Under the pieces are notes generated by a model. That model was given only the letters and a program-made list of their open reading frames with translations, was not told where the DNA came from and searched no databases. Source: Aphrocallistes beatrix (Eukaryota > Porifera > Hexactinellida > Sceptrulophora > Aphrocallistidae). From it: 64,000 nucleotides of DNA. Shown here one piece after another: positions 45,101 through 63,283 of the stretch (position 1 is its first letter; each line of letters starts with the position of its first letter). The position numbers were made by a program, and so were the translations under genes. The DNA lies in assembly GCA_963281255.1 (NCBI GenBank), contig OY725488.1, forward strand, positions 8,405,524-8,469,523, given 5' to 3'.

Positions 45101-45686
45101 TCCTGATAAAAAATCGAGTAGCGATGTGATCAATCCTGTCTTTCATTCAGACTTGAACTTCAATACAAACGGAGTTATTCCATTTCTATCGTTTGTTACG
45201 ACTCACTCAATCCTCTTGACAGAAACTGACATCTCAGAAATAGCCAACAATCTTACCGCACATTTTGAAATGAAGCCCAATATCTCCCTTATAAATCTCT
45301 CTCAATTCCAAGCAGAAGAAGAATTTATCTTTTCCATCAACCAGGATATCTCAATTAAATTGAAAGAGAATGAGAAGAAGATCATCATAATTCAGTGTGA
45401 AGAAAATAGTAAATATTCGGACCTTATTTCGTGTGCTAAATATCGATTGGTTGAAATTATTAATGAAAATAATTCTCGTTTAAATTCGAACTTTTATTTT
45501 ATCTTGATCATCAAACTGGTACTGACAGAACCTGGTTCTGGTTGTTCTAGTTTCTGTGGTGAGCCTTGGGACAGTGTGTATATTGATGAACTCAGAAAAT
45601 CTTATCATTATCTACTTCCTCCATTTGATCAAATCACTCAACTCTCTGTTGCTCAAATATTCAATTATCATTATCAAGATATACCG
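36117..45686 (+). CDS. RNF213-like: Gene 2 exon 1: zinc ribbon, CBM20-like region, stalk and whole AAA+ ring
   Basis: 3190 codons in one exon. Zinc ribbon C5-x4-C10...C25-x2-C28; CBM20-like region about 80-240, including LLIPYKYYFSDS; helical stalk about 300-1400; Ser/Asp linker 1412-1448; AAA2 P-loop G1709-NGK1712; AAA3 P-loop G2119-DTGCGK2125 with Walker B D2185-E2186; AAA4 P-loop G2460-KPGTSK2466 with Walker B D2537-E2538; the NWALDPAKMNRGI motif; ring ends near IDELRKS. All these ATPase residues are intact. The frame reads on seven codons to a stop at 45710, but the donor CCG|GTTTGT matches gene 1. Confidence 0.94.
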
Positions 45687-48600
45687 GTTTGTTATCCTAT
45701 TATAATCTGATATTTTAATTAATTTTTAGTGCTGCTCCTGTAGGGGGATGGATGTCCTTATGGCATTGACGGTATTCTACTTGCGTCCGTATATATTATA
45801 ATTTGTATTTTAAGTTAGTTGCGGGATCTCAACGGATAATTAACTATACCATTATTTAGATCTGTTGTAGATCCGTGAGATTCTTACACTTACATAATCA
45901 TGGATAGTTTTGTAGCGTAGAATTCCTGAGATTTCCATAGAATCGCGCGAAATTTAGTTTCACTTACCAAATATCCTAGTGGTTCAATCGGTTTCATCGC
46001 AACTTGATAACCATCGCCACCAAATTGTGGCACGCGACACCATTTACTATAGCAAAACCCCACTTGAACCTTAAATGCAGAATAAAATTCATCCATGGTC
46101 CATATAGGGTTTTACTAAAGTAAATTGTGTCGCGTGCCACAATTTGGTGGCAATGGTTATCAAGTTACGGAAAAAACGATTGAACCACAGAGCCATTTGA
46201 ATAAGTGGAACTAAATCTCACGATTCCACGGAATTCTACGCTACAAAACCATTCATGGATAAGAATCTCACGAATCTACGCAACAGAGCTAAAAATTCAC
46301 ACTTAGAAAGCTATAAAGTGAGTATTTCCCGATGTATTACGATATTCACGCTTCACGTTCCTTCAATTCACTTACTGGAGCTGAATGGAGCTGCACGTCT
46401 GTTGATTGACATATTTAACCATTAAATTTAACAAATAGAACTTGACATCTATCTCTTCACATGGACATAGTAACAATTATTACCATAAAAAGAGGAGATT
46501 ACTCCGTTGCGTGCAGAAAGCTGTCTTCAGATTATTTGACCCTTCTAAAAATACCAATGGAAGATATGAACACAGAATTTCTAGACTTGCTCAATTTCTA
46601 TCTCATCAAGGTAATCTAGCTTTCAACTATTGATCTGTTATTATTCAGGCTATAGTGGTATATTCCGAATATCATATTTTCAAACTTATCTTGATTACTT
46701 TTGTTGTTGATTACAATAAATTCTCATAAAGAAGAAAATTTGAAATGGATTAGTAAAATCAATATTTGGCACTCGTAGGGACTTCTGAATTCGTTGATAT
46801 TCCCAGCTCACGCAGGGAGACTCTACTAACACAAAGTATTCGCTAGCCGCAAAGCGCACTTGTTTTTTTAATAAATAAATACATAATGTTATGTAATTGT
46901 TCAATATCAAATTAACTGTTTGATTCAGTAGACAAACTTATGGAAGCCTTCGTTCAACAACGATATATAGGTTAAAATTGAAAAATTATTAAGAACTACT
47001 TTAGGACGAGAATTGTGTTGGGTTTTGTTGTTTTGCACCAAAAACTCCTCCAAGTACCCTTTGGAAGCTTTTTATGACCTAAATGCCCACTTGACTCGAT
47101 AACTTTGAACTCAAATTTTGACAAAATTCCTAACTTCAAATCCTTGGTTAAAAGCTATTCATTATTTAAAAAATATCACTGCTAAAAACTATGAACATTG
47201 TCTCCTTTACAAAATAGATTCAATTGATGAAAAATTACCTTTTGAGGTATTATGATGCTTCAAATTTAAAAGCTATTACTACCTAAAAAGGCTTCTTTTT
47301 TAAACCGAAACCAGTCATTTTGTACTAAGTCAAAGAAAGCCTGCATTGGGTGCTTGGTGGAGTTTTTGGTGCAAAACTACAAATTTCAACCTCATTCCCG
47401 TCCGAGAGTGGTCTTTTTTGCATATTTCAATTTTGATCTCTACACTGTGGTTTAACCAAACGAAATGATATACATATTCTTATCTAGAACTAGCTGACCT
47501 AACATGCGATAAGATTTCCAATCTCTTGAGTCAGATCACCTCTACAAAGTACAGTGCAGAATGGGCCTACATCAAAGCTCTAGAACCTGACTGCTCCACC
47601 TGCTGTGTTAATTTCATGAAGACTTTGTCTTTATATATTGATGATCTCATCGTACCACTGCTGGGAGGTATCTTGGCTATCCTTGACACTCACAACAATT
47701 TAGATTTACCATTTCATAAAGGAGAAGAAAATATTAAAGAACTCTGGGAAATGTTTTATCGAGATGAGAATATAATCAATTTGAGTTATTTGATTACAGA
47801 GCGAGCTTTGAGTTCTCGCCACTCAATTCTAAATCACTCTAAGAAGATAAAACTAGCGGAAAACAGTTTTCCTTTTTTTCAGATGATATACCAGCGGATC
47901 AACCGTCTTTTTCATCAAATGTGCGCTAATGTCGGTAAGTTGATTGATTTCTAAAATATTTATGATTAAAACATCCTTCTATTCGCTCTAATTCCGGAGC
48001 AGTTAAAACGTGCACCATGGTTTAGGATCAAAGAATACGATTAGTCCCAGACGGCTCTTAACATCGAATAGCGCCTATACTATTATATCTCTCAATCAAT
48101 GCGTGTTTTGATTTATCACGAAACTATAACTTGCAGCCTCCAGGTGCTATTAGTCTCAGCTGGAGATATTTAAAATTCCCTAGAGCATGTGCCAGGGACT
48201 TTTAAAATATGCTCAGCGGGTGTTTATCTCAGCTCATCCGGTCTGTGTGAGGTTTTTCAATCTCCATTTTAATGTTTGTTGTCTCTATATAGGAATTAAT
48301 GAGACTTTTGAGAGGTTTGAAGATGATTTCAATCAATCATCAATCGGTAGAGCAGTGTCTACAGTGAAAGACAGTAAGACTAAGAACTCTCTTTCTATTC
48401 AAGAAGCATATCTGTGGGACTTTTCTACTTACCATATGTCATCTGTAGATAAGCAATTATTCCGAGTAAGCAATTATTCAGAGCAGTTTACATTTTGTAT
48501 TCTCTAAAATATTCCAATTTCAATAATTTTTTTAAAAAAATTTATGTTCTGTTTTTATTCTCTAGACTATTTACATCATGTTGTTCGTTGCTGCTTCTAA

Positions 48601-51600
48601 ACTCAGGAGAACGAGAATAGGTGGAGGTGTAACTGAAGACTATGCACACCCTGATAAGCTACCAGAAGTAACGATTCCTAGTATACACATAGCTTATCAT
48701 CTGATACGGAGAAGAATAGTTTTTGTTAATGAAGCGTTCAGTCTGGGGATTAAGTTTCCTCGAGACCATATCATTCGTCATGATAATTGGCACCAAAATC
48801 CGAAAATATTTTTTGAGTTAAGATACATAGATTTTATGATTTTTGAAATCGCTATTAAAAGATGTTTAGAAGGAATGCAATATATGGAAATACCTAGATC
48901 TCACGAAAAAAATCTTCCCCAGTATCATATTTTTGTTAGTATCGTTTCATCATACAGTTGTTTAATCGAAAAAAATTGGAGGCTATTTCAGAATGACTTC
49001 AGCAAAGAGTTGGATTCTCTAAGGTAAATTCAGTACAATATCTACCGGTACGTAACCCATATGTTTATTCATCTTTGCATCCAAAGATCAGCTCTATAAT
49101 TTACTTAAATAATTAAGATTAATATATTCGGTAAAATGAAAAAAAATAAAAAGCCTTGTTTTGGGAAAGAACTTTTTAAACTTTAATAAGTACAATATTC
49201 GAAATCTACACCACTAAAACCCCCATATCAACAGTTTAAAGCTAGTTTCTAGGATATTTCTGAGGGTTGTTTACTTTATGTAATTAATGACAATGACATT
49301 CTATTTTTAGTTTACTGACTATACTATGTATAGTGGCCAACTTCTGAAATGAGTGCCTCCCTTTTTTTCCTTTTTCTTGTTTTCTCCATAATTGATTTTT
49401 CGGGAATACCCTAAGTCTGAAAAGGATGAACTTTGGACAGAGGTGTACACTGTTTATGGACAGACGAAGTTACTATACGATTTTTGATCTAACACTTCTT
49501 GCCACATTGAGACACCTTTTAAATATAGACAAGCTACTTAATTTTAATATTTGACTACGGTATTCTTTTTCATTGATTCGAGTACACAACGAAAAAGAAC
49601 CCTAGGTACTATTTGAATAGATCTCAATTATATTACACAAATATTACTAGAACATCATATCCATACAAGGATTATATTCTACATTTATGCTTGAAATTCA
49701 ATAACTTGAAAAGTGATAGAAGAAAACTTTCAACGAATAAATGTTCATCATATACCTTGGTACCACTTAATAAACATACGTATGTGGTCAAGTGACGGCG
49801 ACTCATCATAAAATCCAAAATGTTGAATTTGCATTATTATCCTATACAATGTTCACCAAAAACATTTTCTCATAACTATCAAAATTTTCACACCTCGGGA
49901 GATGTTAAAATAGAATAACTGAAAAACGAGAAGAGATAGAGATTAGGTTACTTGAGATGAATTGTTCATTAGGCATTATAACACCTTTCTAAACAAAAAT
50001 TCATGATCAGTATAAAATGATTCATCAATAATTATATCATGTACAAAAAATATCATAAAGATACCCCCGTTTGCCTCCACCTTAATGATGCAGTCGCCAG
50101 CCAGAGATCCCTCAAAAGGACTGGAGTCCGGATCAGTTATTGTCAAATAAGTCGCACTGTGCCGGACTATACTCACTTGGTATCCGGCGCTTTTGAGGGA
50201 TCTCTGGCTGGCGACTGCACGATCAAGGTGGAGGCAAACTGAGTATCTTTATAAGATTTTGTTTGTTTGTTTGTCCGAATTGATTGAAGAATTGACAAGT
50301 AGATGTCAAATGATGAGTCTACGATTAAGTTCAAAAGTCTATGCGAAATTTTCACACCTCTGCAAAAAAATGAAAGCAATTTTTTACACCTTTTCTATAC
50401 AATATGCATGGCTTCACTCTCACAATAGAATTCATTGTACGACACTATAATATACTGCCATTGTCATGGATACTTCAAAGCAACAAGCGCGCTTCGCTTG
50501 CTTGCGCTGCGCGGCTGGTGGACACTTCGTGTCCGCCGGAGCCTCCCTTCGGTCGCCTGGAGGTGACATTGGTTAATTATAAGGGAGATATCATCTCTAA
50601 ATATGTCCATCTTAGTGTTAATTAAAACCGATTTCACTCGAAAAATCACCAAATTTGTCAATTTTAAAATTTTTGATGCGTAATGATGACGTCATAACAA
50701 AGTGATGAGTCATCATTTTTTAAAGTCGCATCATATGTGAGGTATGTTAGTATACAGATTCTATTAAAATTTCAGCCTTCTATCTCCTATAATGGCTGAG
50801 TTATGCCCGAATAACTGTGTTGCTTAACTTTTAAAAATGTGACAATGACGTCATAATTCCATGATGAGTCGACATTTTGCTCTGAACTCAGAACTTACTG
50901 GAGCCATAGCCAAAAGACTCCCACATGCCAAAAATCAGCCTTCTGCGCCCGGCAGTTTCTTCAATCAATTCGTTACATATATATATATACAATAATCGAG
51001 TTTTAATAGTAAGGATAATTATTAATTTATTGCATTGCAATAAAAATGGTTGTGTATATTTTCACACCTTTATATACATATTTTCACACCATTAGACGAA
51101 TTTTGGAAAATATGCTAGAGGCTAGCTTCCAACGATTTAAATGGGGTTTTTAGGGATGTAGATTTCGAATATTATATTTTCAGATCTTTATGATAACTTT
51201 TTGTCTACTTTTTTATACAATAGATACATATAGTAAACAAATCTCAAAAATATGCTAGAGACTAGCTTGCAACGGTTTACATTGGGTTTTAGGGGTGTAG
51301 ATTTCGAATATCATATTTTCGAATCTATGTGATAAATTATTTGTTTTCTTTTGTTTACAATTGCTACTTAAAGTAAACAAATTCTAAAAATGAGCTAGAG
51401 AATAGCTTCAACTGTGACCTTTTTTAGAGGTCTGTTGCATGAGAAATTGACCCCCATGGGAAAATGACTCCCCCTAATTATTGAGTATCCATGGTTCCTA
51501 TATACAAGGGGAGTCATTTTCCCATGGGGGTCAATTTCTCATGCAACAGGTCTATATTCCGAATTTAGTATTTTCGATATAATTTATAAAAATATTTGAT

Positions 51601-54600
51601 TTGATTTGTTTACAATATACTACAATCCCTTCTAAGTTCTTCCGACTAGACTTTTAGTTGCACCATAGTACTGTTGCGTGATATCTTGAGATCGTAATAT
51701 TTTGAGATCCTAGTATAAAGTAACCATGGATGATTTAGTACCGTGATATCTTGAGATCGTAATATTTTGAGATATGGTACAGTGTGTTTCATAATTATTG
51801 GCACTAAACTTTAACTTAATGTGGTATCAAACTTGTAATTAGAAAGAGTATTATAATTTCAGGATAACTTCATGTATGTATGTTCTTACTATATATACAT
51901 TGTTTTGAGTCACACTATCATACCATGTGATTACCCAGCATCTTTTCTAGAATGCAAACTCATTCTTTGTCTCAGTTTTTTGTCAAAATTCCAACAACAT
52001 TTTGCTATGGTATAGCAATGTTTTCTTCTATACCGCTTAATTTAGTTATAGAGATATCTAAGCATGTATATATCTTGTAGTTATGCATTTCTTAAGGATT
52101 TGTTCAAAGTATTCAGCAAGATATAGGTTCTGAAAGTCAGAATTAGGAGTGTGATTGAGGCCCGCAGAGATTAACAATGTAAAAAGTGGAATTTAGCCCA
52201 TAAAATTCACAATTTTGAACTTAACTTGTTTAACCCTCGCCTGGCTACGTCTCAAAAGTATAAATAGAGAAAACCCCACTTTCATTTTCACTTTCAGTTC
52301 ACTTTCAATGTACTTTCATTTTCACTTTCAACATTCCTAGCCAGCCGCGGGTTAAAGTAATGGTTTAACTAATAATTAGTGCTATTTGTGGGTATTGACC
52401 ATAAATACAATTATTTTTTCTCAAATTAAATTTTTTTTCTCGAGAAATTTGATTTTTGTAGGGTAATCACTTGAACACTCCTAATTCTGACTTTCAGAAC
52501 CTATATCTTGCTGAATACTTTGAACAAATCTTTAAGAATTGCACAACTACAAGATATCCCTACTTTGCCGAGGAATGTTGAATTGAAATTGAAAGTTAAT
52601 TCATTTTCAATTGAAATTGAAAATGAAAGTGGGGTCATTTCTATTTATACCTTTGACCCCACGTCAAATTAGGGATAATTATATAATATACATGCTTAGA
52701 TATCTCTATAACTAAATTAAGCGGTATAGAAGAAAACATTGCTATACCATAGCAAAATGTTGTTGGAATTTTGACAAAAAACTGAGACAAAGAATGCTTT
52801 TGCATTCTAGAAAAGATGCTGGGTAATCACATGGTATGATAGTGTGACTCAAAACAATGTATATATAGTAAGAACATACATACATGAAGTTATCCTGAAA
52901 TTATAATACTCTTTCTAATTACAAGTTTGATACTGCATTAAGTCAAAGTCTAGTGCCAATAATTATGAAACACACTAGCATTCTGAGATTTTGTTTGGCT
53001 TACTCAAATGGCCTTGTGGTTCAATCGGTCTCATTGTGGCACTAAATTGTGGCACATGACAAAATTTGATGGCACGTGACACAATTTAGTGGCACGCGAC
53101 ACAATTTCCTATGTAAAACCCCATATGGACCATGGATCAATTATATTTTAATATTTATGGTCCATATGTGGTTCTACATAGGAAATTGTGTCGCGTGCCA
53201 CTAAATTGTGTCGCGTGCCATCAAATTTTGTCATGTGCCACAATTTAGTGCCACAATGAGACCAATTGAACCACAAGGCCATTTGAGTAAGCCAAACAAA
53301 ATCTCAGAATGCTACCATATCTCAAAATATTACGATCTCAAGATATATCACGCAACAGTACTTAAATGTACATTCGAAGTCGTTTTTTTTGTGCAATCGA
53401 TTTCATAGCCTAGGCAACAAAAATTAACGCTCTGTATTTACTTAATACAAATATTTACCTCTATTTAGGTCCAAGTGGAAAGGTGCTAAATGCTTGGCAA
53501 TATTTATTTCAAACTTTTTTGATGAGAAATTGCTTGAAGATATCAATTTGAGGATGAAATCAACAGTAATTTTACATGAAGCGTTTAACAGCATTCGTAA
53601 TGTAATTAATAATAGTATATTCTCACTTAATAACTATTTAACTAATTTGAACATGAATGTTTATAATATAACAATTTATTATGGAATATTCTTCAGATAG
53701 TAACTCAGGAGGATCTTAATTTCCAATCTTTACATACAGTCAAATCTATCTTAGAAGTGCTGCAGATATTTACGTAAGTAATTTACTATCTCTGTGAAGC
53801 AATTCTCATTGTGAGAGCATTGAAATAGTTAAGGAATACTGACATTTCGTTACACGACTGCTGATCAGGGATAGGAACATCGCTCCTTGTTAGTTCTATG
53901 TTCGTATAATATAAGGATAATTATATAAAAAATAAAAATGTTGCTCGTATAATGAAAAATGAATAAAACGTCCATAAATTTGGCCCTATTTAGTAAACTT
54001 CAGATACCAAAAGTCAGTATGAGAAATAACTTCCAAGTTTGTCGTTTACAGATTGTACTGGAACCACCTTACCTGTTTAAATCCCTTTGATGCTATTCTT
54101 AACTTTAAAGAGTACAACCATCGGAAATGATAATATTTATAAATTATTTTTGTATTATTAGATCAGTTAAATCAGATGATATCATTTGTAATGAGCAGAA
54201 TAAAGAAATTCCTTCGATCCTCTTTGAAGTTTGCAACAGGTATACTACAGTATGACATACGTAGCTTCACTTTCAATACAAATTACAAAGTTAAGAGGAT
54301 TGTACTCTGTAACGGTTGTAACGGTTGACTCTAATTTAGTTCTAGATAATTTGTTATCAATCACTTCAATTGATTTATGTACAAATTTTCTATAGTTGTA
54401 AGTCTGAGCTGTTGGATTTCTTCCAAGATCTTTCTTCCCGCTTCTTTTTGCAGATTATTTTGAATGTCACTTTTTCAAATGGAATTACCTCAATTCAAGA
54501 AGATCTCAGAAATTATTTGCTTGCATTTTTATTAAAGAATCAAACTTGTAACATTGTTAAAAAATCAACGCTTGCTCCTCTTTATTTATTCAAAGATAAA

Positions 54601-57600
54601 GAAATCAATCCTTCTCCAGCTCTTCGTTGTATTCTTTTAGAAATTATACTGAGAGACAGGTAGAAACTCTGATCAATTCAGTATTTTATTGTTTTCTTTA
54701 GACAAGAAACATCTTATAAGATAGCGTCTTGTTGGATATTGCAAGTTAAAACCCTAATTAACCTGGGGATATATATATATTCTATCAATATCCACATTTT
54801 ATCGCTTCCTCGCCCCCAAATCACTTAACCAGAAATTAGCAAAATCCCTAATATACTCTAATTAAAGCCCCTAATTAGTGACCATATTTATAAGGTGTAC
54901 GTACGTACACATTTGCATGCTGATACACATATATATTCTAAATGTTCATGAATTTTAGATGAAAGCCATATGAATTAAATTTTTCTTGTCATAGAAATGA
55001 ATCGATCCAGAATCAAATAGCTGAACTTATTAAGAAGAACTTGTTGAAACAGAAAGAGCTGGCTTCTGAGGACAATCTGGCTTATCTTCTTCAAAGTTTA
55101 GAAGTAAAGACTGTATTTATACTAAATATTAGCGGATAGAGAAAGTGTGAATATACTACTTGTAGTATTTATAAATATTTTATGTACGTACGTACGCGCG
55201 AGCGATCCAGCGAAATATTCGCGAAATTCGTTTTTTATATGGTTCTTACACCGTCACGATGTGAAATCCGATTTTCGCTAATAGATGATTTGAAGTAAAG
55301 TATGATATTTACCTCCCAGGTATGAATGGCGGACATTTCGTCGCGGATTTTTAGAAACCTTTGATTCAAATTTGAACCTTCCTTCACATACAATTACAGG
55401 AAAAAATTTATAATTATAAAAAAAGGCAATGATGCGGCATAATATCGTGACTAAATAGCATTTTTGTCTGAGACTCGATTTTGACATATCGCGTATTTAT
55501 ATATATAGTAAATACTACATACATAGGGAGGAATATTACAAAAAATTTCTAAAATAATTATTTGAAGGAGAGAGTTGCCCAAAGGGTGAGACTGGGATGG
55601 GCGCGAAATGTCTGTGGGCAATCGAGCAAATCGCGCTTGTTTATAAATAACTTGAGACGTGCATCCTATTTATTTCATACTCGTATTCACTTATTCTCAG
55701 AACTATTGTAATGTTAACATATTCACTGTATTGTATACTTCTGTATCCCTCAGGATTCTTATCATCACAGCCTTACCAAAACCAAAGAAAGCATCAGTAA
55801 TGTTTTATCGAAATTTGACATTTCACTCTGTCCCTTCTCATCCTCGAAAGTTATTACCTATGAAATCATTGAATCAGTTGCTGCAATACGCTTTGCCATA
55901 CACTGGGTTGTAAAATGGATGACTGCATCTCATTTACGAAGAAAGTACTTTAGGATTCAGATACAAGATTATGTGTATGATACCATTCCTCGGGATCACA
56001 ACATTCCAGTAGATAACAAAGAATTGAAAGAATTGATTGAGAATCTTAAAGGAATTATAAAAAAAGATCCTGACATCCAACTATTCTTATCAAAGACGTT
56101 TTACTTTCATGTTGGTTATGGTGAGATGGTAAAATACAAGGACAATTACCTTATGAAGTGTTTTTTCCCGCAAAATCAAGTAATAGAGGTTAGTCAATTC
56201 GTAATTATGCATTCTTATTTTTCAAATTTTTTAGTTATTTGTAAATTTTAAAAGTTGCAACATTTCTCTTTGCCTTCCATACTGTTACCATCATGACATC
56301 CCACAAAGGCGCGATTCCCTTCTTCTGTGGCGAGCTAGTGAATACTTCGTGTCCCCATGAGTCACCCTGCGGGCGCCTAATATGAATTTCTTTCACTAAA
56401 TAGGTTAAATTAATAATAAATGAAGAGTGACGATGACGTCATCATCCATGATGCGCCAGCTTTTTCGACCAAAAATAGAATAATATTGTAGATAAGATTA
56501 TTATGTATATTATTTTAGCTAAACATAGATTTTTAAAAATTTCCATGAGTTCACTTTTTCCTGGCATTTAGTTATAGACATTTAAGAATATGATCCATGG
56601 GATAGGAAGCTCTCAAAGAGTTGACGGGCTATCGGAAGAGTATATACAGCGAGCGACGCCAAGCGGGGTTCGGGGCCCTGCCCCCAGAAGAAAAATTTGA
56701 AATACTTTGCCAAGATTCAAGACGCCTATGACCACAATTAGTTACCCCAGTAAATAAATATCAAAGCAAACAAAAGTTGAAACACGGATTAAAAGTCGAC
56801 CTTAGTGGCCCCAACCATTGTGCTTGCAACATTTTTAAGATCCTCCTAGCCATGCTTGAAAATTAAGGGTTAAAATTGCTTCTTCAGCTAAGTATTAAAT
56901 ATTATAATTCATAATAGCCTGTTTATTTTTAGAAGTGTTATCTTGATCTATTCTATGCCATCAATGACACATATGCAGGAATAAAGAAGTTAGTCAGTAC
57001 AGGCTCTACTAAAGACTTAAATCAATCAACTCAAAAAAAGGTTGTTATTATTATAACTGATGCCATTGAATACTTATTTCTAGCAAACCCGCTTCGGTCG
57101 TTCATGGTGCGCGGCTAGCGAATACTTCCTGTCCGCATCAGTGTTCTGTTATGTAACATATCTAAGTATAATTAGGTTAGGATATAAATCATGTTGCTAT
57201 AGTATGTACTTTATATTTACATATATGGACATGTTTGTAGATGGGTGTTAAGAGGTTTCAACAAAACATCATATTCGCTATCTTTAGTGAGTTTGTACCT
57301 TATCATCTGGGATCTTCGAAACAAAGACTATCTTCAGAGAGAGTAAGGATATAATTAGGAATCTATATCAGTCTATCCTAGAAATTTTATGACAGAATTT
57401 TCCATGAGACAGAATTAATTATGAATTTGCAGTTTCATGTGGAAATAAACACCTTTATACTCAAGCATACCACATGTCATCGACCTATTGAATATCTATA
57501 TTGCGAATTCAGTTAGCCTATTGAATAGGAAATTCGTCCATTGCAGAAAAATGTTGGTCGACAGACCGATAGTACAGCTCCAGTAAGTGACTCGAAGGAA

Positions 57601-60600
57601 TGTAAAATGTGAATATCGGAACACTTCGGAAAATACTCATTTTAGAGCATTCTAAGTGTGAAATTTGAAATCTACATACAGTCAGGGTCGCTTATTGTGA
57701 ACCACCAGAGGACCATAAAATCTGTTCATAATAGAGATACTTCATATGAAGTGAACTTGATCCAATACAAATCCTATCTAAAAATGAAATTGGGACCAGG
57801 AGGTTAGTTCATAATAAACGAATACTCATATTAAGCGGGTTCATAATAAGCAACCCTGATTGTATTAAAATACCCTATATTAGTCGTTGAGAACTCCTTT
57901 TTAACTTGAACTATGTTTTTTAAGGTATCAAAATATGGATATATCAATATGTTAATAACGAAGAAAATGCTCAGATTATTACTTTCAAAATCGGAGTTTA
58001 CCCATTAAAATACCCTATTTTCGCCGTTGAGAACTTGTATTTAGCTTAAGATAAATTTTTTTCGAAAGATGTGAAAATTTACATATATACTTATGTATAA
58101 CATAAAATACTTAGATTATTACTTTCAAAGTTCAAAAGTTGGAATCTAGAGTTTATTTTTTTTATCTAAAATATTCAAATTGTAAATTTGATTGAAAGAA
58201 ACAGGCCTCATTAATCTACGGAACCCAGAAAGGAATAAAGCCAAGAATTATATCTGTGGTTTCTATTTTATAGTGGTGAAATATGTAGATGTGTACCTCG
58301 GTATACGATTTTCCGACACATCGGCGGGGTGGTTTCTAGAGTGAGAAAATTTACACAGCATGAATAATCCAAGATTGAGTTCAGGAGATTCCCCGTGCGA
58401 TTTTTAAAATACAGCTCTTTTTGTTTTTAGATGAGTAAATTGAAGGAATGTATCTGCAATATTCTGCCTAAGGAACCCATCGACTTACGAACATTGGTTA
58501 CTGATATCTTGGAGAATAAACTCTTCAACTTGCCTCAGTTAAAGATATCATCAGACACACATCTAAATACAGTTTTCATAGCAGGGGTATTGTGTCACAT
58601 CGGTGTATTTCTGCAGCTGACACGTGATAATACGTTCCTTAAACCTCTCACACTAATTCACTTCAACCCAACTGAGCTTCAGAATCATTTATTTCCCGCA
58701 ATTTCTGAGGAAGAGTCTGTCCAATCAGCTAAAAATGTAATATAACTGACGCAGTTTACTCTAATAACATACTGAATTTTATTTACCGTCTTTCCTTGAA
58801 TAAACGCCGGGGGGCTTGAATAAACGTCGAGGGTTAGATAAGAAGAAAATTTTAAGTTAGGAAAACCATTTGTTATGGCTGGTTGTATTTATGAATACTC
58901 TTAGTGATTAGTAATGACAATATTGGAAATCGTTTATCTCTTTCAAATGAGACTGTTTTTCAACCGATACGGCGCTTTAAATTTTTGAGCTCAGTGGGTT
59001 TTTGAGCACGGAAAAAATGCAAGCGCCGGTGGTTCAAGGTGCACGAAAAAAGGGCCGTCAGTACAGTCCAAGTTCTCTAATCAGGGACTTGAGCCCTCGT
59101 GAATATGGTTACGGATCCTTATCCCGTATCCACTTTATTAAATCGTGAATTTTGTGAATAAAATGAAGACTATTCCTTTCGGAACATCTCCATTAAATCA
59201 GTGACTCTAATCTGATGATTTATCTAATATTGTATCTAGATCGTACAAAAAATCAGATCCCATTCAGAGACTACATCAAGCAGAAGGTCTCATACCGGGT
59301 TAGAGCAATCAAAAAGGGACAGCGATTCACTTCCCATTTACCCACATGCTATTGAGGACCCATTCGATAGATCGACTCCTCTAGATAGAATTAGGTATAT
59401 ATATACTAGTACGTACTGCTATATACTGCTATATTCCATGCTGAAAGTGTGTATATTATCAACTCTTTTAGGAATTTGGCGCCTATATCAGTAGCTCTTA
59501 TTCGCACGTTAATGCACAGCATATTCATATGGACTCTACATTCGAAGCACAAGGAACGTCCTTCTGAAATCATAAAGCTGGTTGAACCTATTTCACCTAG
59601 AAACACCTACATAGAATATTTCTATCTCCACCTAGTCCAGGATATCATAGATATAACCACCATCAGTAGCAACACATTTGAAGAAGCTATTCTGCACGTA
59701 CACTTGCTAGTAAATCTGATGATTCATTCAGATTTAGCGTCTACACTCGACGATCCACGTAAGCAATGCATTACACTGCATTTGATTATCGTAATAGTTC
59801 CTCTTCCCATAATATACGTATCTTTAAGATTTATTTCATGAGTTTATATATTCGACCACCACGAAAACCTCCATATAAATAGTATTAAAGTGGATCTAAA
59901 CATAAAGGAACATGTACTCAAACTGTGAGAAATATTCCTTTTTTTTTCAAATTCGGAAACTACACATCCGAATTAGTCATTTTTGAAACTTTAGATAAAA
60001 ATACCTTGTTCTCTTTCGAAAATTATCAACCTGTGCTACTTTGTGTCACTAATCGCCATCATATACTATAATAGTCGTGACGAGGAACAAGTAGTATCAG
60101 GTATCAAATGTAGTACATATTCCTTTACGAATAGATCCACTTTAATAGTATTTGTATAGAGGTTTTCGTGGTGGTTTTCGAGGTTTTCGTGGATAATAGA
60201 GCTCATTCGAGAAGGATATATCATGGTTATTTCGGGTCTATATATAATCTAGTCCAGAGGCCGGCAACCTTTTGAATGAAGTAAATTTTCACGCTCCTAC
60301 ACACTTTCGGGCTTAAAATCATATGCCTAAAGGAGCGTCTCGCGCTCCTAGATAATTCCTTGTATGAACATGTGTAAATTTACATATACATCCGTACTTA
60401 AAAAAATCAAGCTTCATTGTAATTCTTAATAAACTCTGATCAGGAGGAGAATGTCATGGTTGGTTGTGTTAGCATTTACATTAGCATTTATTTAATAGTG
60501 ACCAACTGGCCATCCTAGCATAAAATTGATATTGTCGCTTCCTAGTAATCACTACAATTCTAATTCTATGGAAATTAGAAGTACGTACACTTAAAATATT

Positions 60601-63283
60601 CCTATAGTCTACTGACTTAAATATTTCAATATCCTGTAGATGCAACTCCCACCGACTTATTAACACTCACTGATCGTGATAAATGGGAGTGTTCTTTTGA
60701 AAAAAATTATATTTACCAACTTGAAAAATCTTATGAGATGCAACTGAGGGAGAAAATGAAGAGTGTTATTTCAAATTCGGACAATTGTGATAGCTCTCTA
60801 TTGAGGTAGGTTTAATAAAATCATCACAGATAGATAGTTACTTATTTGAACCTAATGTATAGAGCTTTCTACGAAGATGAGAAAAAATCAAATTCAATGC
60901 TGTGGAGACATAGGAGTATCATAAGCTATGAACATCTCCTACAAGTTTTTAATTGCCAGAGTTTACATACTATAGCCAAATATCCACTGTTAGAAAAGTT
61001 TCTCAAACAAGAAACTCTCTTGTCTGCCACAAAATACCTACCTGATTTCGTGAGTTTGAAATTTCAACTTATCCAGAAGAGCGTGGAATATTGCAGCCAG
61101 AGGAGAATTTCGGAATTATCTATTTCTGAATTTATTGAATTTATCAAGAATGGTATGTTCATTCTTAATATTCTGCTATGGACTTTCAAATTTAAAATGT
61201 TAGTAATGAAAGCTGCAAACTTCTATATTTTCTTATGATTTTACTCAACTTAGCCATCATTCCGATATTAAGTGCTAGCTAGAATCTCATCCCCGTAATT
61301 TTTCATTTTACTCTAATTTTTTTAAGATGAACCAAAATTTTATCGGTGGGCAGATCAGTGAAATCCTCCTCGCTTTCGTTGATTTTTTACTAAAACAGAA
61401 TTTTCGTATTGTGGTGGAAATATTCCAGTCCAGGTAATACAATTTTCATCTTGTAGAAGAAAATCTTAACACAACTGATGGATATGACTTCAATAGTTTT
61501 CAAGTTATCTATAGTAGATTGAAAAACCATCAAAAATCCAGTTTTGAATGGAATACAATGCTAGTTGGTGATCTGATTGGAGTTGGAAATAAAGAAGGTC
61601 TGCTAACTGAACTAATCTCGATGCTTGTTAATATTCACAACGGCTTCATATCCACATACACTAAGTCGTTTGGTATACCTACAAGGTGATTATGTTAATT
61701 TCTTTCATAACAAAATTAACAACACAAAATTACAACATACGCCGTTTAGACTTGGCATCCTACAAAATTTAAAATTCTATTTTTATTATATTTGTTGATA
61801 TGATGATCAAATTACTATCAATTATATATATCTTTCATCTATACTCGAATACATTTGCATCCCACTGGTCTTTTCTTCTGGAGTTCTATCAACGATATTT
61901 TAATAATTTTATTAGATATACAAGAATTGTACCGCTGAGTGTTGTTTCTCCTTCACACATGATCAACTACGAAGATCATCTTGACAGTCTCATATTCTCT
62001 AACGCCACTTACTCCTTCCAAATGGGAGAAGGGACACACATCCACTATAACTTCAGTGGTATTCAGAAGGACTTTGCCACAAGATTTATGTCCTCTAAAC
62101 CCATAATAACACTAGAAACATTAGACACAGAATATCCAAAACAGATTTCTATGGTTGATTACTTCAAAAGACTGAAAATTCCTCAAGTCGGTTCAGTTGA
62201 ATTTGCATGTGTATATACTACTACTATATAGTAACATATGAAATAATGTTTCATTTTAACATGTAACTTGTTTAGGAAGAATTACCAGATTGGGATGTGA
62301 TTAGAGAAGAAGTGATGAATCCTGTTGAAATATCTGAAGTTATTTCTCTTATTGAGATGGTTCTTAATTTGACATCTTCCACGGATGGATGTTCTCCAGA
62401 CACGAAAATAAAATCTTATTTACACGAAGTACTCAGATACCCGAAAAAGAAAAATCTAAACAGCAAAACAGTGAGTATTTGGAAATTTGGGATTTTAAAA
62501 ATATCATTTTATCAATGCATACTTGTATATACGTACTCTTATTCATAAACCTGCATCTTAGGCAAACGAAGTGTGCTGTCTTAAACACTTATCATCGCTG
62601 TGGCACCATTTATCCGTCCACAGAGCCAAGCGATTAGTGCTTCTTCGTCAGGTAATTCCCATGTATCAATTCTATGTAGCCGATGCCCACAAACATTTTA
62701 AATCATTTTCTATTTATTAGATTATTCTATAAAGGAGTAAATAAGAATTGTTATCAATTGTTTACGCTTCATTATTATATAATTAAGTGCTTTTCATTTG
62801 TTGTTTTAAAAAATACTATACGTATGTACTATGTATAAACACTAACTAATTTTATTTTCGGTCTCATATCTTTAATTATTTTCTAGTCTCCATTTCCCTC
62901 CATATCTTACATTTATTTGGAGAATTTGAGGCCAGTAGATATTCCAAAGTTAATGCAAGACATTACTAAGACAAATGTAGATGGAATTCTCGCACTGATA
63001 CACGATTTCATCTTGTTTCATTTGAATGTATCAGATCTGGCAGTTTATTCAAATAACAAGTAAGTAGTACTAAATATGCGAATAACCGACTGGGAAAAAC
63101 TATTGATTTTTATCCCTGTTTAGTTTGCAAGAGAGTCTTGATAATTTTTCAAAAGGAAAAACTATTTTCACATCATCTAAAAGAACGCCTGACTGTAGCA
63201 TTATTCCAGATGATATCTCTGTTTCCCAAACCATTAGTGCTTGGACTCATATCGTCCAGGAGGCGAGAAGAAGATTTAATTGA
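36117..63283 (+). CDS. RNF213-like: Gene 2: complete RNF213-like giant AAA+ protein (4823 aa) lacking RING and RZ fingers
   Basis: Exons: 36117-45686, 46439-46610, 47488-47934, 48293-48465, 48566-49023, 53469-53601, 53697-53773, 54162-54239, 54396-54659, 54995-55103, 55754-56188, 56933-57040, 57241-57342, 58431-58736, 59240-59394, 59472-59758, 60640-60805, 60863-61152, 61457-61685, 61916-62210, 62276-62470, 62562-62651, 62887-63059, 63124-63283. All boundaries are GT-AG, phases agree and no stop interrupts the chain. Order: zinc ribbon (Cys5, Cys10, Cys25, Cys28), CBM20-like region (about 80-240), helical stalk, AAA2-AAA4 with intact P-loops, rest of the ring, E3 shell, C-terminal domain. Start choice: the ATG has A at -3 and G at +4 and begins the ribbon. 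Human RNF213 is 5207 aa; the shortfall fits a shorter disordered N-terminus plus loss of both fingers. ATPase activity is likely; ligase activity by the known RZ mechanism is not. Confidence 0.9.
45861..46287. mobile_element. CTGTTG foldback element
   Basis: TCTGTTGTAGATCCGTGAGA at the left and TCTCACGAATCTACGCAACAGA at the right are inverted. Arms of about 200 bases include GTCGCGTGCCAC and TTGGTGGC. Related palindrome at 52977-53312 and a half copy near 23278-23470. Fills gene 2 intron 1. Confidence 0.88.
46292..46415. repeat. Dispersed repeat shared with 57555-57675
   Basis: TTCACACTTAGAAAGC ... GAGTATTTCCCGATGTATTA ... TTCACTTACTGGAGCTG corresponds to the reverse complement of 57555-57675. 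Its downstream edge is 23 bases before gene 2 exon 2. Confidence 0.6.
46439..46610 (+). CDS. RNF213-like: Gene 2 exon 2
   Basis: Residues 3191-3248. Acceptor AAATAG, donor CAAG|GTAATC. Encodes NLTSISSHGHSNNYYHKKRR, then LLRCVQKAVFRLFDP. The intron before it is 752 bases against 66 in gene 1, because a foldback element sits in it. Confidence 0.87.
46611..46870. repeat. GTAGATTTCGAATATCAT-type module and GCGC-hairpin fragment
   Basis: 46612-46740 matches the module at 33770-33910 and 51104-51410. 46785-46870 carries a decayed inverted GCGC-hairpin end (GGGAGACTCTACTAACACAA, CGCAAAGCGCACTTG). Confidence 0.55.
46970..47436. mobile_element. Foldback element in gene 2 intron 2
   Basis: TTGCACCAAAAACTCCTCCA at about 47033 is matched in inverse by TGGTGGAGTTTTTGGTGCAA at about 47359. 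The arms extend outward to TTAAAATTGAAA and its inverse TTTCAATTTTGA. Arms about 95 bases, noncoding. Confidence 0.8.
47488..47934 (+). CDS. RNF213-like: Gene 2 exon 3
   Basis: Residues 3248-3397; E3-shell helices including LYIDDLIVPLLGGILAILD. One codon longer than gene 1 exon 3. Acceptor ATCTAG, donor G|GTAAGT. Confidence 0.9.
47935..48292 (+). other. Gene 2 intron 3: nothing recognised
   Basis: Unlike gene 1 intron 3 (3.6 kb, several elements), this is 358 bases with no repeat I can place. Confidence 0.5.
48293..48465 (+). CDS. RNF213-like: Gene 2 exon 4
   Basis: Residues 3397-3454; GINETFERFEDDFNQSS then LSIQEAYLWDFSTYHMSS. Acceptor TATATAG, donor CGA|GTAAGC. Confidence 0.88.
48566..49023 (+). 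CDS. RNF213-like: Gene 2 exon 5
   Basis: Residues 3455-3607. TIYIMLFVAASKLRRTR, PEVTIPSIHIAYHLIRRR, then a tail much diverged from gene 1 and six codons longer overall. Donor AG|GTAAAT opens a 4.4-kb transposon-filled intron. Confidence 0.88.
50057..50250. mobile_element. MITE with about 55-base inverted ends
   Basis: TTTGCCTCCACCTTAATGAT and GCAGTCGCCAGCCAGAGATC at the left are inverted at 50190-50240. AAAGATAC and GTATCTTT form the outer tips. Gene 2 intron 5. Confidence 0.87.
50255..51100. mobile_element. TTCACACCT family copy interrupted by the GCGC-hairpin element
   Basis: 50255-50480 and 51017-51100 match consecutive parts of 33410-33780. The break is exactly where the element 50484-51016 sits, so the latter inserted later. 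Confidence 0.8.
50484..51016. mobile_element. GCGC-hairpin family, copy 3
   Basis: CAAGCGCGCTTCGCTTGCTT at the start and TCGAGTTTTAATAGTAAGGA at the end. Contains two TGACGTCA, one TGAGTCAT and the GTGGACACTTCGTGTCCGCC hairpin. The left terminal repeat is missing. Confidence 0.88.
51104..51410. repeat. Tandem copies of the GTAGATTTCGAATATCAT module
   Basis: ATGCTAGAGACTAGCTTGCA ... GGGGTGTAGATTTCGAATAT recurs at about 140-base spacing, at least two full copies and a third start. Single copies elsewhere at 15898-16075, 33770-33910 and 49196-49275. Confidence 0.8.
51432..51549. mobile_element. 118-base MITE with 42-base perfect inverted repeats
   Basis: Arms 51432-51473 and 51508-51549 are exact reverse complements, starting CTGTTGCATGAGAAATTGAC. 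Loop of 34 bases. No decay, so a recent insertion. Confidence 0.93.
51780..52976. mobile_element. CAGTGTG foldback element, copy 2, with internal insertion
   Basis: Same ends and outer arms as 25581-26216. The centre is expanded: about 52155-52690 adds a second pair of inverted blocks with TTTCACTTTCA runs (52280-52340) and their inverse (52570-52650). Confidence 0.88.
52977..53312. repeat. Palindrome related to the CTGTTG foldback
   Basis: AGCATTCTGAGATTTTGTTT at the left is inverted at 53293-53312. Arms of about 160 bases with repeated GTCGCGTGCCA / TGGCACGCGAC. It directly abuts the CAGTGTG copy. Confidence 0.88.
53469..53601 (+). CDS. RNF213-like: Gene 2 exon 6
   Basis: Residues 3607-3651. 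SKWKGAKCLAIFISNFFDEK, then STVILHEAFNSIRN. Acceptor TATTTAG, donor AAT|GTAATT. Two codons longer than gene 1. Confidence 0.83.
53697..53773 (+). CDS. RNF213-like: Gene 2 exon 7 (last exon before the missing RING)
   Basis: Residues 3652-3677: IVTQEDLNFQSLHTVKSILE, then VLQIFT. Acceptor TTCAG, donor AC|GTAAGT. Confidence 0.82.
54162..54239 (+). CDS. RNF213-like: Gene 2 exon 8 (first exon after the missing RING)
   Basis: Residues 3677-3703: SVKSDDIICNEQNKEIPSIL, then FEVCNR. Acceptor ATTAG, donor AG|GTATAC. The 388-base intron before it has no Cys/His-rich frame. Confidence 0.78.
54396..54659 (+). CDS. RNF213-like: Gene 2 exon 9
   Basis: Residues 3703-3791: CKSELLDFFQDLSSRFFLQI, TSIQEDLRNYLLAFLL, SPALRCILLEIILRD. 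Corresponds to the CNSFFVDL region immediately after the human RING. Acceptor CTATAG, donor AG|GTAGAA. Confidence 0.89.
54660..54994 (+). other. Gene 2 intron 9: nothing recognised
   Basis: 335 bases, AT-rich, with a short ATAT run and GTACGTACGTACAC. Intron 7 (53774-54161) was read in all frames for a RING finger and has none. Confidence 0.5.
54995..55103 (+). CDS. RNF213-like: Gene 2 exon 10
   Basis: Residues 3791-3827: NESIQNQIAELIKKNLLKQK, then NLAYLLQSLE. Acceptor TCATAG, donor GAA|GTAAAG. Confidence 0.85.
55104..55753 (+). other. Gene 2 intron 10: fragments only
   Basis: One GGACATTTCGTCGCGG word (near 55331) of the element at 24500, and a decayed GCGC-hairpin end at about 55570-55640. 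Nothing coding. Confidence 0.5.
55754..56188 (+). CDS. RNF213-like: Gene 2 exon 11
   Basis: Residues 3828-3972, phase 0. Acceptor CTCAG, donor GAG|GTTAGT. Includes NVLSKFDISLCPFSSSKVIT, AIRFAIHWVVKWMTASHLRR and LSKTFYFHVGYGEMVK. Confidence 0.89.
56189..56932 (+). other. Gene 2 intron 11: decayed repeats
   Basis: 56290-56480 is a worn GCGC-hairpin copy with CGATGACGTCATCATCC. The rest is unassigned. Confidence 0.5.
56933..57040 (+). CDS. RNF213-like: Gene 2 exon 12
   Basis: Residues 3973-4008: KCYLDLFYAINDTYAGIKKL and a polar tail. Acceptor TTTTTAG, donor AAG|GTTGTT. Confidence 0.85.
57241..57342 (+). CDS. RNF213-like: Gene 2 exon 13
   Basis: Residues 4009-4042: KRFQQNIIFAIFSEFVPYHL, then a short polar end. 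Acceptor TTTGTAG, donor AGA|GTAAGG. Confidence 0.85.
57555..57864. mobile_element. Dispersed repeat followed by a 188-base MITE
   Basis: 57555-57675 is the inverse of 46292-46415. 57677-57864 has inverted ends TACAGTCAGGGTCGCTTATT and AATAAGCAACCCTGATTGTA with TA at both tips, a Tc1/pogo-type MITE in gene 2 intron 13. Confidence 0.82.
57865..58135. repeat. Direct tandem duplication, about 140-base unit
   Basis: ATTAAAATACCCTAT...GTTGAGAACT...TTAGATTATTACTTTCAAA occurs twice (57865 and 58006), diverged. No coding frame. Confidence 0.75.
58431..58736 (+). CDS. RNF213-like: Gene 2 exon 14 (last exon before the missing RZ finger)
   Basis: Residues 4043-4144. KEPIDLRTLVTDILENKLFN, HLNTVFIAGVLCHIGVFLQL and FNPTELQNHLFPAISEEESV. 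Reads GAG where gene 1 has TAG. Acceptor TTTTTAG, donor AAT|GTAATA. Confidence 0.88.
58737..59239 (+). other. Gene 2 intron 14 (where an RZ finger would be expected)
   Basis: 503 bases read in three frames. Only one isolated Cys and His (CKRRWFKVHE near 59019) and no zinc-finger spacing. Contains a direct repeat of TTGAATAAACG at 58795-58825. Confidence 0.7.
59240..59394 (+). CDS. RNF213-like: Gene 2 exon 15 (linker in place of the RZ finger)
   Basis: Residues 4145-4196. IVQKIRSHSETTSSRRSHTG, then SDSLPIYPHAIEDPFDRST. No Cys at all, one His pair apart from the linker; Ser/Arg/Asp-rich. Acceptor ATCTAG|ATC, donor AG|GTATAT; three codons shorter than gene 1. Confidence 0.78.
59472..59758 (+). 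CDS. RNF213-like: Gene 2 exon 16
   Basis: Residues 4196-4292: NLAPISVALIRTLMHSIFIW, LVQDIIDITTISSNTFEEAI. Acceptor TTTTAG, donor CCAC|GTAAGC. Confidence 0.9.
59847..60182. mobile_element. Tc1/mariner-like MITE, copy 2
   Basis: TATTCGACCACCACGAAAAC at the left faces GTTTTCGTGGTGGTTTTCG at the right; ATAGTATTAAAGTGGATC also pairs with its inverse. Same family as 17432-17913 but the outer tips are worn. Confidence 0.75.
60287..60360. repeat. Dispersed 74-base repeat, copy 2
   Basis: Second copy of the repeat at 13842-13915. It ends in GGAGCGTCTCGCGCTCCTAG, which forms a short hairpin. Confidence 0.8.
60640..60805 (+). CDS. RNF213-like: Gene 2 exon 17
   Basis: Residues 4292-4347: ATPTDLLTLTDRDKWECSFE, then a charged helix unlike gene 1. 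Acceptor CTGTAG, donor AG|GTAGGT. Confidence 0.82.
60863..61152 (+). CDS. RNF213-like: Gene 2 exon 18
   Basis: Residues 4347-4444: AFYEDEKKSNSMLWRHRSII, KYPLLEKFLKQETLLSATKY. Acceptor TGTATAG, donor G|GTATGT. Confidence 0.87.
61153..61456 (+). other. Gene 2 intron 18: nothing recognised
   Basis: 304 bases without a repeat I can place. Gene 1 intron 18 is 1.6 kb because of the composite element there. Confidence 0.5.
61457..61685 (+). CDS. RNF213-like: Gene 2 exon 19
   Basis: Residues 4444-4520: VGDLIGVGNKEGLLTELISM then LVNIHNGFISTYTK. Acceptor CTTGTAG, donor AG|GTGATT, a weaker donor than in gene 1. Confidence 0.84.
61916..62210 (+). CDS. RNF213-like: Gene 2 exon 20
   Basis: Residues 4520-4618. 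Near-identical to 32209-32509 but two codons shorter near its 3' end. Acceptor TATTAG, donor TGT|GTATAT. Confidence 0.88.
62276..62470 (+). CDS. RNF213-like: Gene 2 exon 21
   Basis: Residues 4619-4683: EELPDWDVIREEVMNPVEIS, then STDGCSPDTKIKSYLHEVLR. Acceptor TTTAG, donor ACA|GTGAGT. Confidence 0.88.
62562..62651 (+). CDS. RNF213-like: Gene 2 exon 22
   Basis: Residues 4684-4713: CCLKHLSSLWHHLSVHRAKR and LVLLRQ. Acceptor TCTTAG, donor CAG|GTAATT. Confidence 0.88.
62887..63059 (+). CDS. RNF213-like: Gene 2 exon 23
   Basis: Residues 4714-4771: SPFPSISYIYLENLRPVDIP, then TNVDGILALIHDFILFHLN. Acceptor TTCTAG, donor AA|GTAAGT. Confidence 0.88.
63124..63283 (+). CDS. RNF213-like: Gene 2 exon 24 (C-terminus)
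   Basis: Residues 4771-4823: DNFSKGKTIFTSSKRTPDCS, then QTISAWTHIVQEARRRFN and TGA 63281-63283. Acceptor GTTTAG. The final helix is the usual end of RNF213. Confidence 0.9.

What the first reader, a model, noticed from the sequence alone, without database searches (positions are those of the whole stretch)
58737..59239. Both paralogues lack the catalytic RZ finger; a polar linker takes its place
Residues before (FIAGVLCHIGVFLQL...FPAISEE) and after (LAPISVALIRTLMH) the RZ finger align well with vertebrate RNF213. Between them is only a Ser/Arg/Asp-rich exon (15) with no Cys in gene 2. RZ carries the ligase activity of RNF213, so this AAA+ machine should be unable to transfer ubiquitin by that route. 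An RNF213 with an intact motor but neither zinc module would be a pseudo-ligase: a decoy, a regulatory partner of a full-length RNF213, or a pure mechanochemical ATPase.
Basis: partly seen in the sequence, partly recalled or inferred. Interest (0 to 1): 0.85.

Follow-up and report, generated by a model that had tools for sequence, protein, structure and literature searches.

The report
RNF213 clade without its ligase finger
In what is probably a glass sponge, a block of tandem giant genes related to the human immune protein RNF213 has kept the ATP-driven motor but lost the part that attaches ubiquitin, a natural test of what the motor does on its own.

Summary
58737-59239 is exactly intron 14 of a 24-exon RNF213 gene model (36117-63283, 4818 aa, no internal stop). 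No RZ finger was found there or elsewhere in the window. The next exon (59240-59394) is not a foreign linker but the old second RZ exon: same slot, same splice phases, same post-RZ element (human HVLGNPQRRD = gene 2 PHAIEDPFDR), with the zinc half replaced by polar residues.

The genome holds at least 28 RNF213-type AAA+ cores. Ten on contig C1 (the window has the last two) and five on C6 lack RZ; ten other loci keep both RZ halves. The 15 RZ-less genes form one clade nested among RZ-bearing ones (support 100/99; 100), so one loss explains them. Walker A/B of AAA3 and AAA4 are intact in both window genes; the linker exon is under purifying selection (dN/dS 0.35, 0.19-0.60).

Caveats: gene 1 has a stop before the linker; RING loss was checked in three genes only; no transcripts; function is inferred. 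Best reading: a maintained clade of ligase-null RNF213 motors.

The parts
36117..63283 (+). Gene 2: RZ-less RNF213, 24 exons, 4818 aa, ends at TGA 63281-63283
   Evidence: exon chain by dynamic programming over open frames that have homologues in gene 1; GT and AG ends were required by the method, phases had to fit, and the joined frame has no stop. No transcript data.
36117..45686 (+). Exon 1 of gene 2: N-terminal four-Cys ribbon, stalk and AAA+ core in one exon
   Evidence: core matches human RNF213 at E 1.6e-246; C5, C10, C25, C28 invariant in 13 of 13 sequences.
42468..42689 (+). AAA3 Walker A (GDTGCGKT) and Walker B (ILFFDEAN)
   Evidence: aligned with the same motifs of RNF213 chains.
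43482..43751 (+). AAA4 Walker A (GKPGTSKS) and Walker B (VVLDEVG)
   Evidence: aligned with RNF213 chains.
58431..58736 (+). Exon 14 of gene 2: segment before the RZ slot; the first RZ half that ends this exon in RZ-bearing genes is gone
58737..59239 (+). Intron 14 (the interval of the finding); no RZ exon found in it
59240..59394 (+). Exon 15: former second RZ exon; zinc half replaced by a Ser/Arg/Asp-rich stretch, post-RZ element PHAIEDPFDR kept; 155 nt, so skipping it would shift the frame
   Evidence: (found in 10 of 10 C1 copies).
59472..59758 (+). Exon 16: conserved segment after RZ (LAPISVALIRTLMH...)
26942..27292 (+). Gene 1 exon 14, interrupted by TAG at 27182-27184
   Evidence: end taken from the reading frame and a GT in the printed sequence.
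28643..28806 (+). Gene 1 exon 15, homologue of the gene 2 linker exon

Best explanation
Shown from sequence: in one ancestor of a tandem-expanded RNF213 subfamily, the RZ finger (and, where checked, the RING) was eroded inside its own exons while exon slots, splice phases, the AAA+ motor and the C-terminal domain were kept; ten copies on C1 and five on C6 descend from it, and the eroded exon is under purifying selection. Inferred: the proteins are ligase-null RNF213 motors (pseudo-ligases) that still bind and hydrolyse ATP and still reach targets through the N-terminal and stalk parts. They probably work as non-ubiquitylating receptors or coat scaffolds on intracellular microbes or membranes, alone or co-assembled with the RZ-bearing paralogues of the same genome, which would then supply ubiquitin.
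For: No RZ at 15 of 15 loci with working positive controls. Same exon slot and phases in 7 of 7 RZ-bearing and 10 of 10 RZ-less loci examined, and shared post-RZ element. One clade. dN/dS: AAA core 0.37 (0.31-0.43), exon 14 0.26, exon 15 0.35 (0.19-0.60), exon 16 0.42 (0.17-0.91). Walker motifs intact in both window genes. Human RNF213 with dead RZ still coats Toxoplasma vacuoles, while ATPase activity is needed for all coats tested (PMC11549300). RZ-bearing paralogues exist in the same genome.
Against: No transcript, protein or assay. Four of ten C1 copies carry a stop in the stretches examined, so part of the array is decaying. The exon 16 interval for dN/dS nearly reaches 1. Tandem copies may exchange sequence, which disturbs dN/dS. 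RZ mutants of human RNF213 do not coat Salmonella or Listeria (same paper), so a scaffold role is not general. The N-terminal domain could not be tied to the human carbohydrate-binding domain. The E3 part upstream of exon 12 has no detectable similarity to vertebrate RNF213, so an unrecognised ligase element there is not excluded.
Confidence: 0.6

Rival explanations
1. Regulatory partner or dominant-negative: the RZ-less proteins mainly bind RZ-bearing RNF213 (for example the C16 pair) and restrain or steer it, as the pseudo-ligase TRIM51 represses TRIM49.
For: Active and inactive forms coexist in one genome; TRIM precedent (PMC11992055, passages).
Against: No interaction data; 15 copies, tandem and mutually divergent, are more than a simple inhibitor would need.
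Confidence: 0.25
2. Hidden or trans RZ: an RZ exon too divergent to see is spliced in, or RZ sits elsewhere in the protein.
For: Two of nine second RZ halves were missed in the leave-one-out control; no cDNA.
Against: First halves were recovered 6 of 6; intron 14 is not conserved in 9 of 9 copies; the old RZ exon is accounted for by exon 15; Pfam finds none in the joined protein.
Confidence: 0.05
3. Decaying array: the RZ-less copies are pseudogenes or on the way to it.
For: Stops in 4 of 10 C1 copies, among them gene 1; altered Walker B in 2 of 10.
Against: Six of ten show no stop in the stretches examined; gene 2 has an open frame of 4818 codons; dN/dS well under 1 in the core and in the linker.
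Confidence: 0.1
4. Ligase by another route: the E3 module transfers ubiquitin through a new Cys or by recruiting an E2 without RING or RZ.
For: The E3 part upstream of exon 12 is highly diverged from vertebrates.
Against: No known zinc or catalytic module found; dead-RZ human RNF213 did not ubiquitylate the three targets tested.
Confidence: 0.07

Closest known systems
RNF213 (mysterin) of vertebrates, PDB 8S24, 7OIM, 6TAX
   Same: AAA+ core over its whole length (824 bits), Walker motifs of AAA3 and AAA4, C-terminal domain (99 bits), post-RZ element.
   Different: No RZ finger; no RING found; upstream E3 part not recognisable by sequence; many tandem copies.
RZ-bearing RNF213 paralogues of the same genome (C16 pair closest)
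   Same: Sister group in both trees; same exon slots; AAA core 52% identical.
   Different: C16 keeps both RZ halves and a RING-like C3HC4 exon (Pfam 25 bits, below the cut-off of 27).
TRIM pseudo-ligases (TRIM51 and others; PMC11992055, passages seen)
   Same: Paralogues of active E3s that lost catalysis.
   Different: There the RING remains but is inactive; here the zinc modules are gone and an AAA+ motor remains.
ZNFX1 (C7 locus, 2031-aa frame)
   Same: Shares the RZ type finger with RZ-bearing RNF213.
   Different: Helicase family; keeps RZ; not a relative of the motor (name recalled; one search shows only the RZ match).

Membership tests
RNF213 | RNF213-type AAA+ core | tested here: met
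   1307 aa of gene 2 match human RNF213 at E 1.6e-246.
RNF213 | Walker A and B in AAA3 and AAA4 | tested here: met
   Intact in gene 1 and gene 2; Walker B of AAA3 altered in 2 of 10 C1 copies.
RNF213 | RZ finger with C4505, H4509, C4525, C4528 and catalytic C4516, H4537 (residues from PMC11549300) | tested here: not met
RNF213 | RING domain | tested here: not met
   No RING pattern in the window or in one of the five C6 copies; present in C16. A search with the C16 RING found only the C16 pair among RNF213 loci, so it is insensitive.
RNF213 | C-terminal domain after RZ | tested here: met
   99 bits over about 625 residues.
RNF213 | N-terminal CBM20 domain | tested here: inconclusive
   No Pfam or PDB sequence match; AlphaFold2 model mean pLDDT 44.
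Pseudo-ligase (pseudoenzyme) | Homologue of an E3 that lacks the catalytic motif, kept by selection | tested here: met
   RZ absent, one clade, dN/dS under 1.
Pseudo-ligase (pseudoenzyme) | No ubiquitin transfer in an assay | not testable with these tools
   Needs protein.

The most novel reading that the evidence does not exclude
A whole clade of RNF213 has been freed from ubiquitin transfer and expanded as a family of pure mechanochemical immune receptors: ATP-driven coat-forming proteins that mark or deform microbes without ubiquitin, diversified in the stalk.
Probability: 0.35. Interest if true: 0.8.

Novelty: new variant of a known kind. Interest (0 to 1): 0.62.

Why it matters
What the RNF213 motor does apart from ligase activity is an open question in the literature read here (PMC11549300 Discussion). 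A natural clade that kept the motor and dropped the ligase, beside paralogues that kept both, lets one test it by comparison. It also shows stepwise erosion of a zinc finger within conserved exon slots.

Tried and rejected
Hidden RZ exon in intron 14: no conserved stretch. RZ elsewhere in the protein: none. RZ missed by the family model: searched with the C16 RZ and at E 10: still none on C1 or at the five C6 loci. RING by pattern: only one CxxC-type hit in the window, at 27519 in gene 1 between exons. A 25-residue exon 8 of gene 2 might be a RING remnant; gene 1's version does not keep the pattern, so not claimed. N-terminal CBM20: no sequence match and a poor model, so no fold search was run. 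Expansion or RZ-less RNF213 in print: paper searches gave RNF213 expansion in bivalves (PMC9993606, passages) and six genes in salmon (PMC12234341, passages), and no listed paper on an RZ-less clade; only open-licence papers are searched.

Left out of counts: the tree holds 9 of the 10 RZ-bearing loci (C4:1.47 Mb has no post-RZ exon found) plus human; RZ status of C19:2318 and C6:1509 is by neighbouring exons on the same strand. Three C15 loci have AAA similarity but no RZ or post-RZ match and were not studied. Both trees carry long-branch warnings; one search is a quick tree.

Full report
What is there. The window lies on contig C1 of a 100.5 Mb genome in 28 contigs. The organism is inferred, not given: COX1 lies on a separate small contig (C28), reads TGA as Trp 11 times, and AGA stands at positions where the vertebrate protein has Ser; AUA is much the commonest Ile codon (40 of 65). 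Reassignment of AGR to Ser together with heavy AUA use is reported for glass sponges and not for other non-bilaterian animals (PMC2267718, passages), and a glass sponge genome of 80 Mb is known (PMC10282587, passages). A glass sponge is therefore the likeliest source.

Gene model. Gene 2 runs from ATG 36117 to TGA 63281-63283 in 24 exons, 4818 aa, with no internal stop. GT and AG ends were a condition of the method, so they are not an independent test; the fit of phases through 23 introns and the alignment of the C-terminal product with human RNF213 over about 625 residues (99 bits) are. The interval of the finding, 58737-59239, is intron 14. Exon 15 is 59240-59394.

No RZ finger. The Pfam RZ model over the whole genome finds ten RNF213-type loci in which the finger is split over two exons (C4 two, C6 three, C16 two, C19 three) and a ZNFX1-like gene on C7, plus one weak match on C20; none on C1 or at the five C6 loci of interest. 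The tool scores only its best candidates, so local HMMs of the two halves were made. They find no significant match in the window or the 15 RZ-less intervals; leave-one-out recovered 6 of 6 first halves and 7 of 9 second halves, missing the divergent C16 pair. Intron 14 has no similarity to any of the other nine C1 copies although both flanking exons do.

What exon 15 is. In RZ-bearing paralogues the exon before ends with the first RZ half in phase 0 (5 of 5 looked at), and the second RZ half sits in an exon that starts in phase 0 and ends in phase 2 within an Arg codon split AG|G (7 of 7). Exon 15 of the RZ-less genes starts in phase 0 and ends in the same split codon (10 of 10 looked at, of 15). 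Its end carries the element that follows RZ: SHVLGDPFGR or close to it in most C1 copies, PHAIEDPFDR in gene 2, PHVLGDPFGR or PHKLGDPFCR in C6, GHLLGNPLER in C16, and phmmer aligns the gene 2 form with HVLGNPQRRD of human RNF213. So exon 15 is the second RZ exon with its zinc half worn away. Linker cysteines number 0-3 over 15 copies, against the four Cys and two His of an RZ finger (PMC11549300).

A clade. At least 28 AAA+ cores of RNF213 type were counted by grouping the pieces: C1 ten, C6 nine, C19 three, C15 three, C16 two, C4 one. The post-RZ exon and pre-RZ exon are present in all ten C1 copies and five C6 copies; exon 15 by similarity to gene 2 in all ten C1 copies, and in the five C6 copies by reading. 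A tree of pre- and post-RZ segments (25 rows) puts the 15 RZ-less genes in one clade (100/99) with the C16 pair as sister (99/95); the AAA core tree agrees (SH-aLRT 100). One loss suffices.

Selection and motor. Within the ten C1 copies (45 pairs) dN/dS is 0.37 (0.31-0.43) in the AAA core, 0.26 in exon 14, 0.35 (0.19-0.60) in exon 15, 0.42 (0.17-0.91) in exon 16. Walker A and B of AAA3 and AAA4 are intact in both window genes; two other C1 copies have changed Walker B of AAA3 and one of four C6 copies examined a changed Walker A of AAA3. Stops occur in the core of three C1 copies and in exon 14 of gene 1; six of ten, gene 2 among them, show none in the stretches examined.

RING. C16 has a C3HC4 exon, 25 bits to Pfam zf-C3HC4_3, just under the cut-off. 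No such pattern occurs in the window or in the C6:618 copy. The search with the C16 RING finds no other RNF213 locus, also not RZ-bearing ones, so RING loss in the remaining copies is open.

How it probably works. Human RNF213 with dead RZ no longer ubiquitylates Salmonella, Listeria or Toxoplasma vacuoles and no longer coats the two bacteria, but still coats Toxoplasma vacuoles; ATPase activity is needed for all three coats (PMC11549300, passages and Discussion). A ligase-null RNF213 with an intact motor could therefore act as a ubiquitin-free coat or receptor, or join coats with RZ-bearing paralogues that bring ubiquitin. A regulatory role by pairing, as for TRIM51 and TRIM49 (PMC11992055, passages), is the main rival. 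These steps are inference. Gene 1 and gene 2 differ most in the stalk (residues 801-1600: dS 0.28-0.55, elsewhere 0.06-0.26), with dN/dS below 1 in every window, so there is no sign of positive selection there.

Novelty. RNF213 copy-number expansion is known in bivalves and salmon; no listed paper describes an RZ-less clade.

Noticed in passing
27182-27184: Gene 1 has an in-frame TAG in exon 14 where gene 2 has GAG; the other examined exons of gene 1 are open in the matching stretches.
   Followed up: partly
window 1-8709 against 36117-45710: Gene 1 and gene 2 differ unevenly along the giant exon: stalk residues 801-1600 have dS 0.28-0.55, most other windows about 0.1, which suggests exchange between tandem copies.
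   Followed up: partly
L069:1086-1300 (C1:8.31 Mb copy): The N-terminal four-Cys ribbon is present twice in tandem in this copy, once in each of two sequence types seen singly in other copies.
   Followed up: no
C15:2477649, 3140981, 3611912: Three more distant RNF213-type AAA loci (32-40% identity) with no RZ or post-RZ match on C15.
   Followed up: no
L058 (C6:2944180-2948600): RZ-bearing paralogue in which the His after the GG of RZ seems replaced (GGKDRRV), so its catalytic His may be missing.
   Followed up: no
54162-54239: Exon 8 of gene 2, 25 residues, lies where the RING exon lies in C16 and may be its remnant; gene 1's version does not keep the Cys pattern.
   Followed up: partly
53010-53310: Long near-perfect inverted repeat within an intron of gene 2, likely a small mobile element (seen by eye).
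   Followed up: no
C28 (L057): Mitochondrial COX1 with TGA as Trp and AGA at Ser positions, as in glass sponges.
   Followed up: yes
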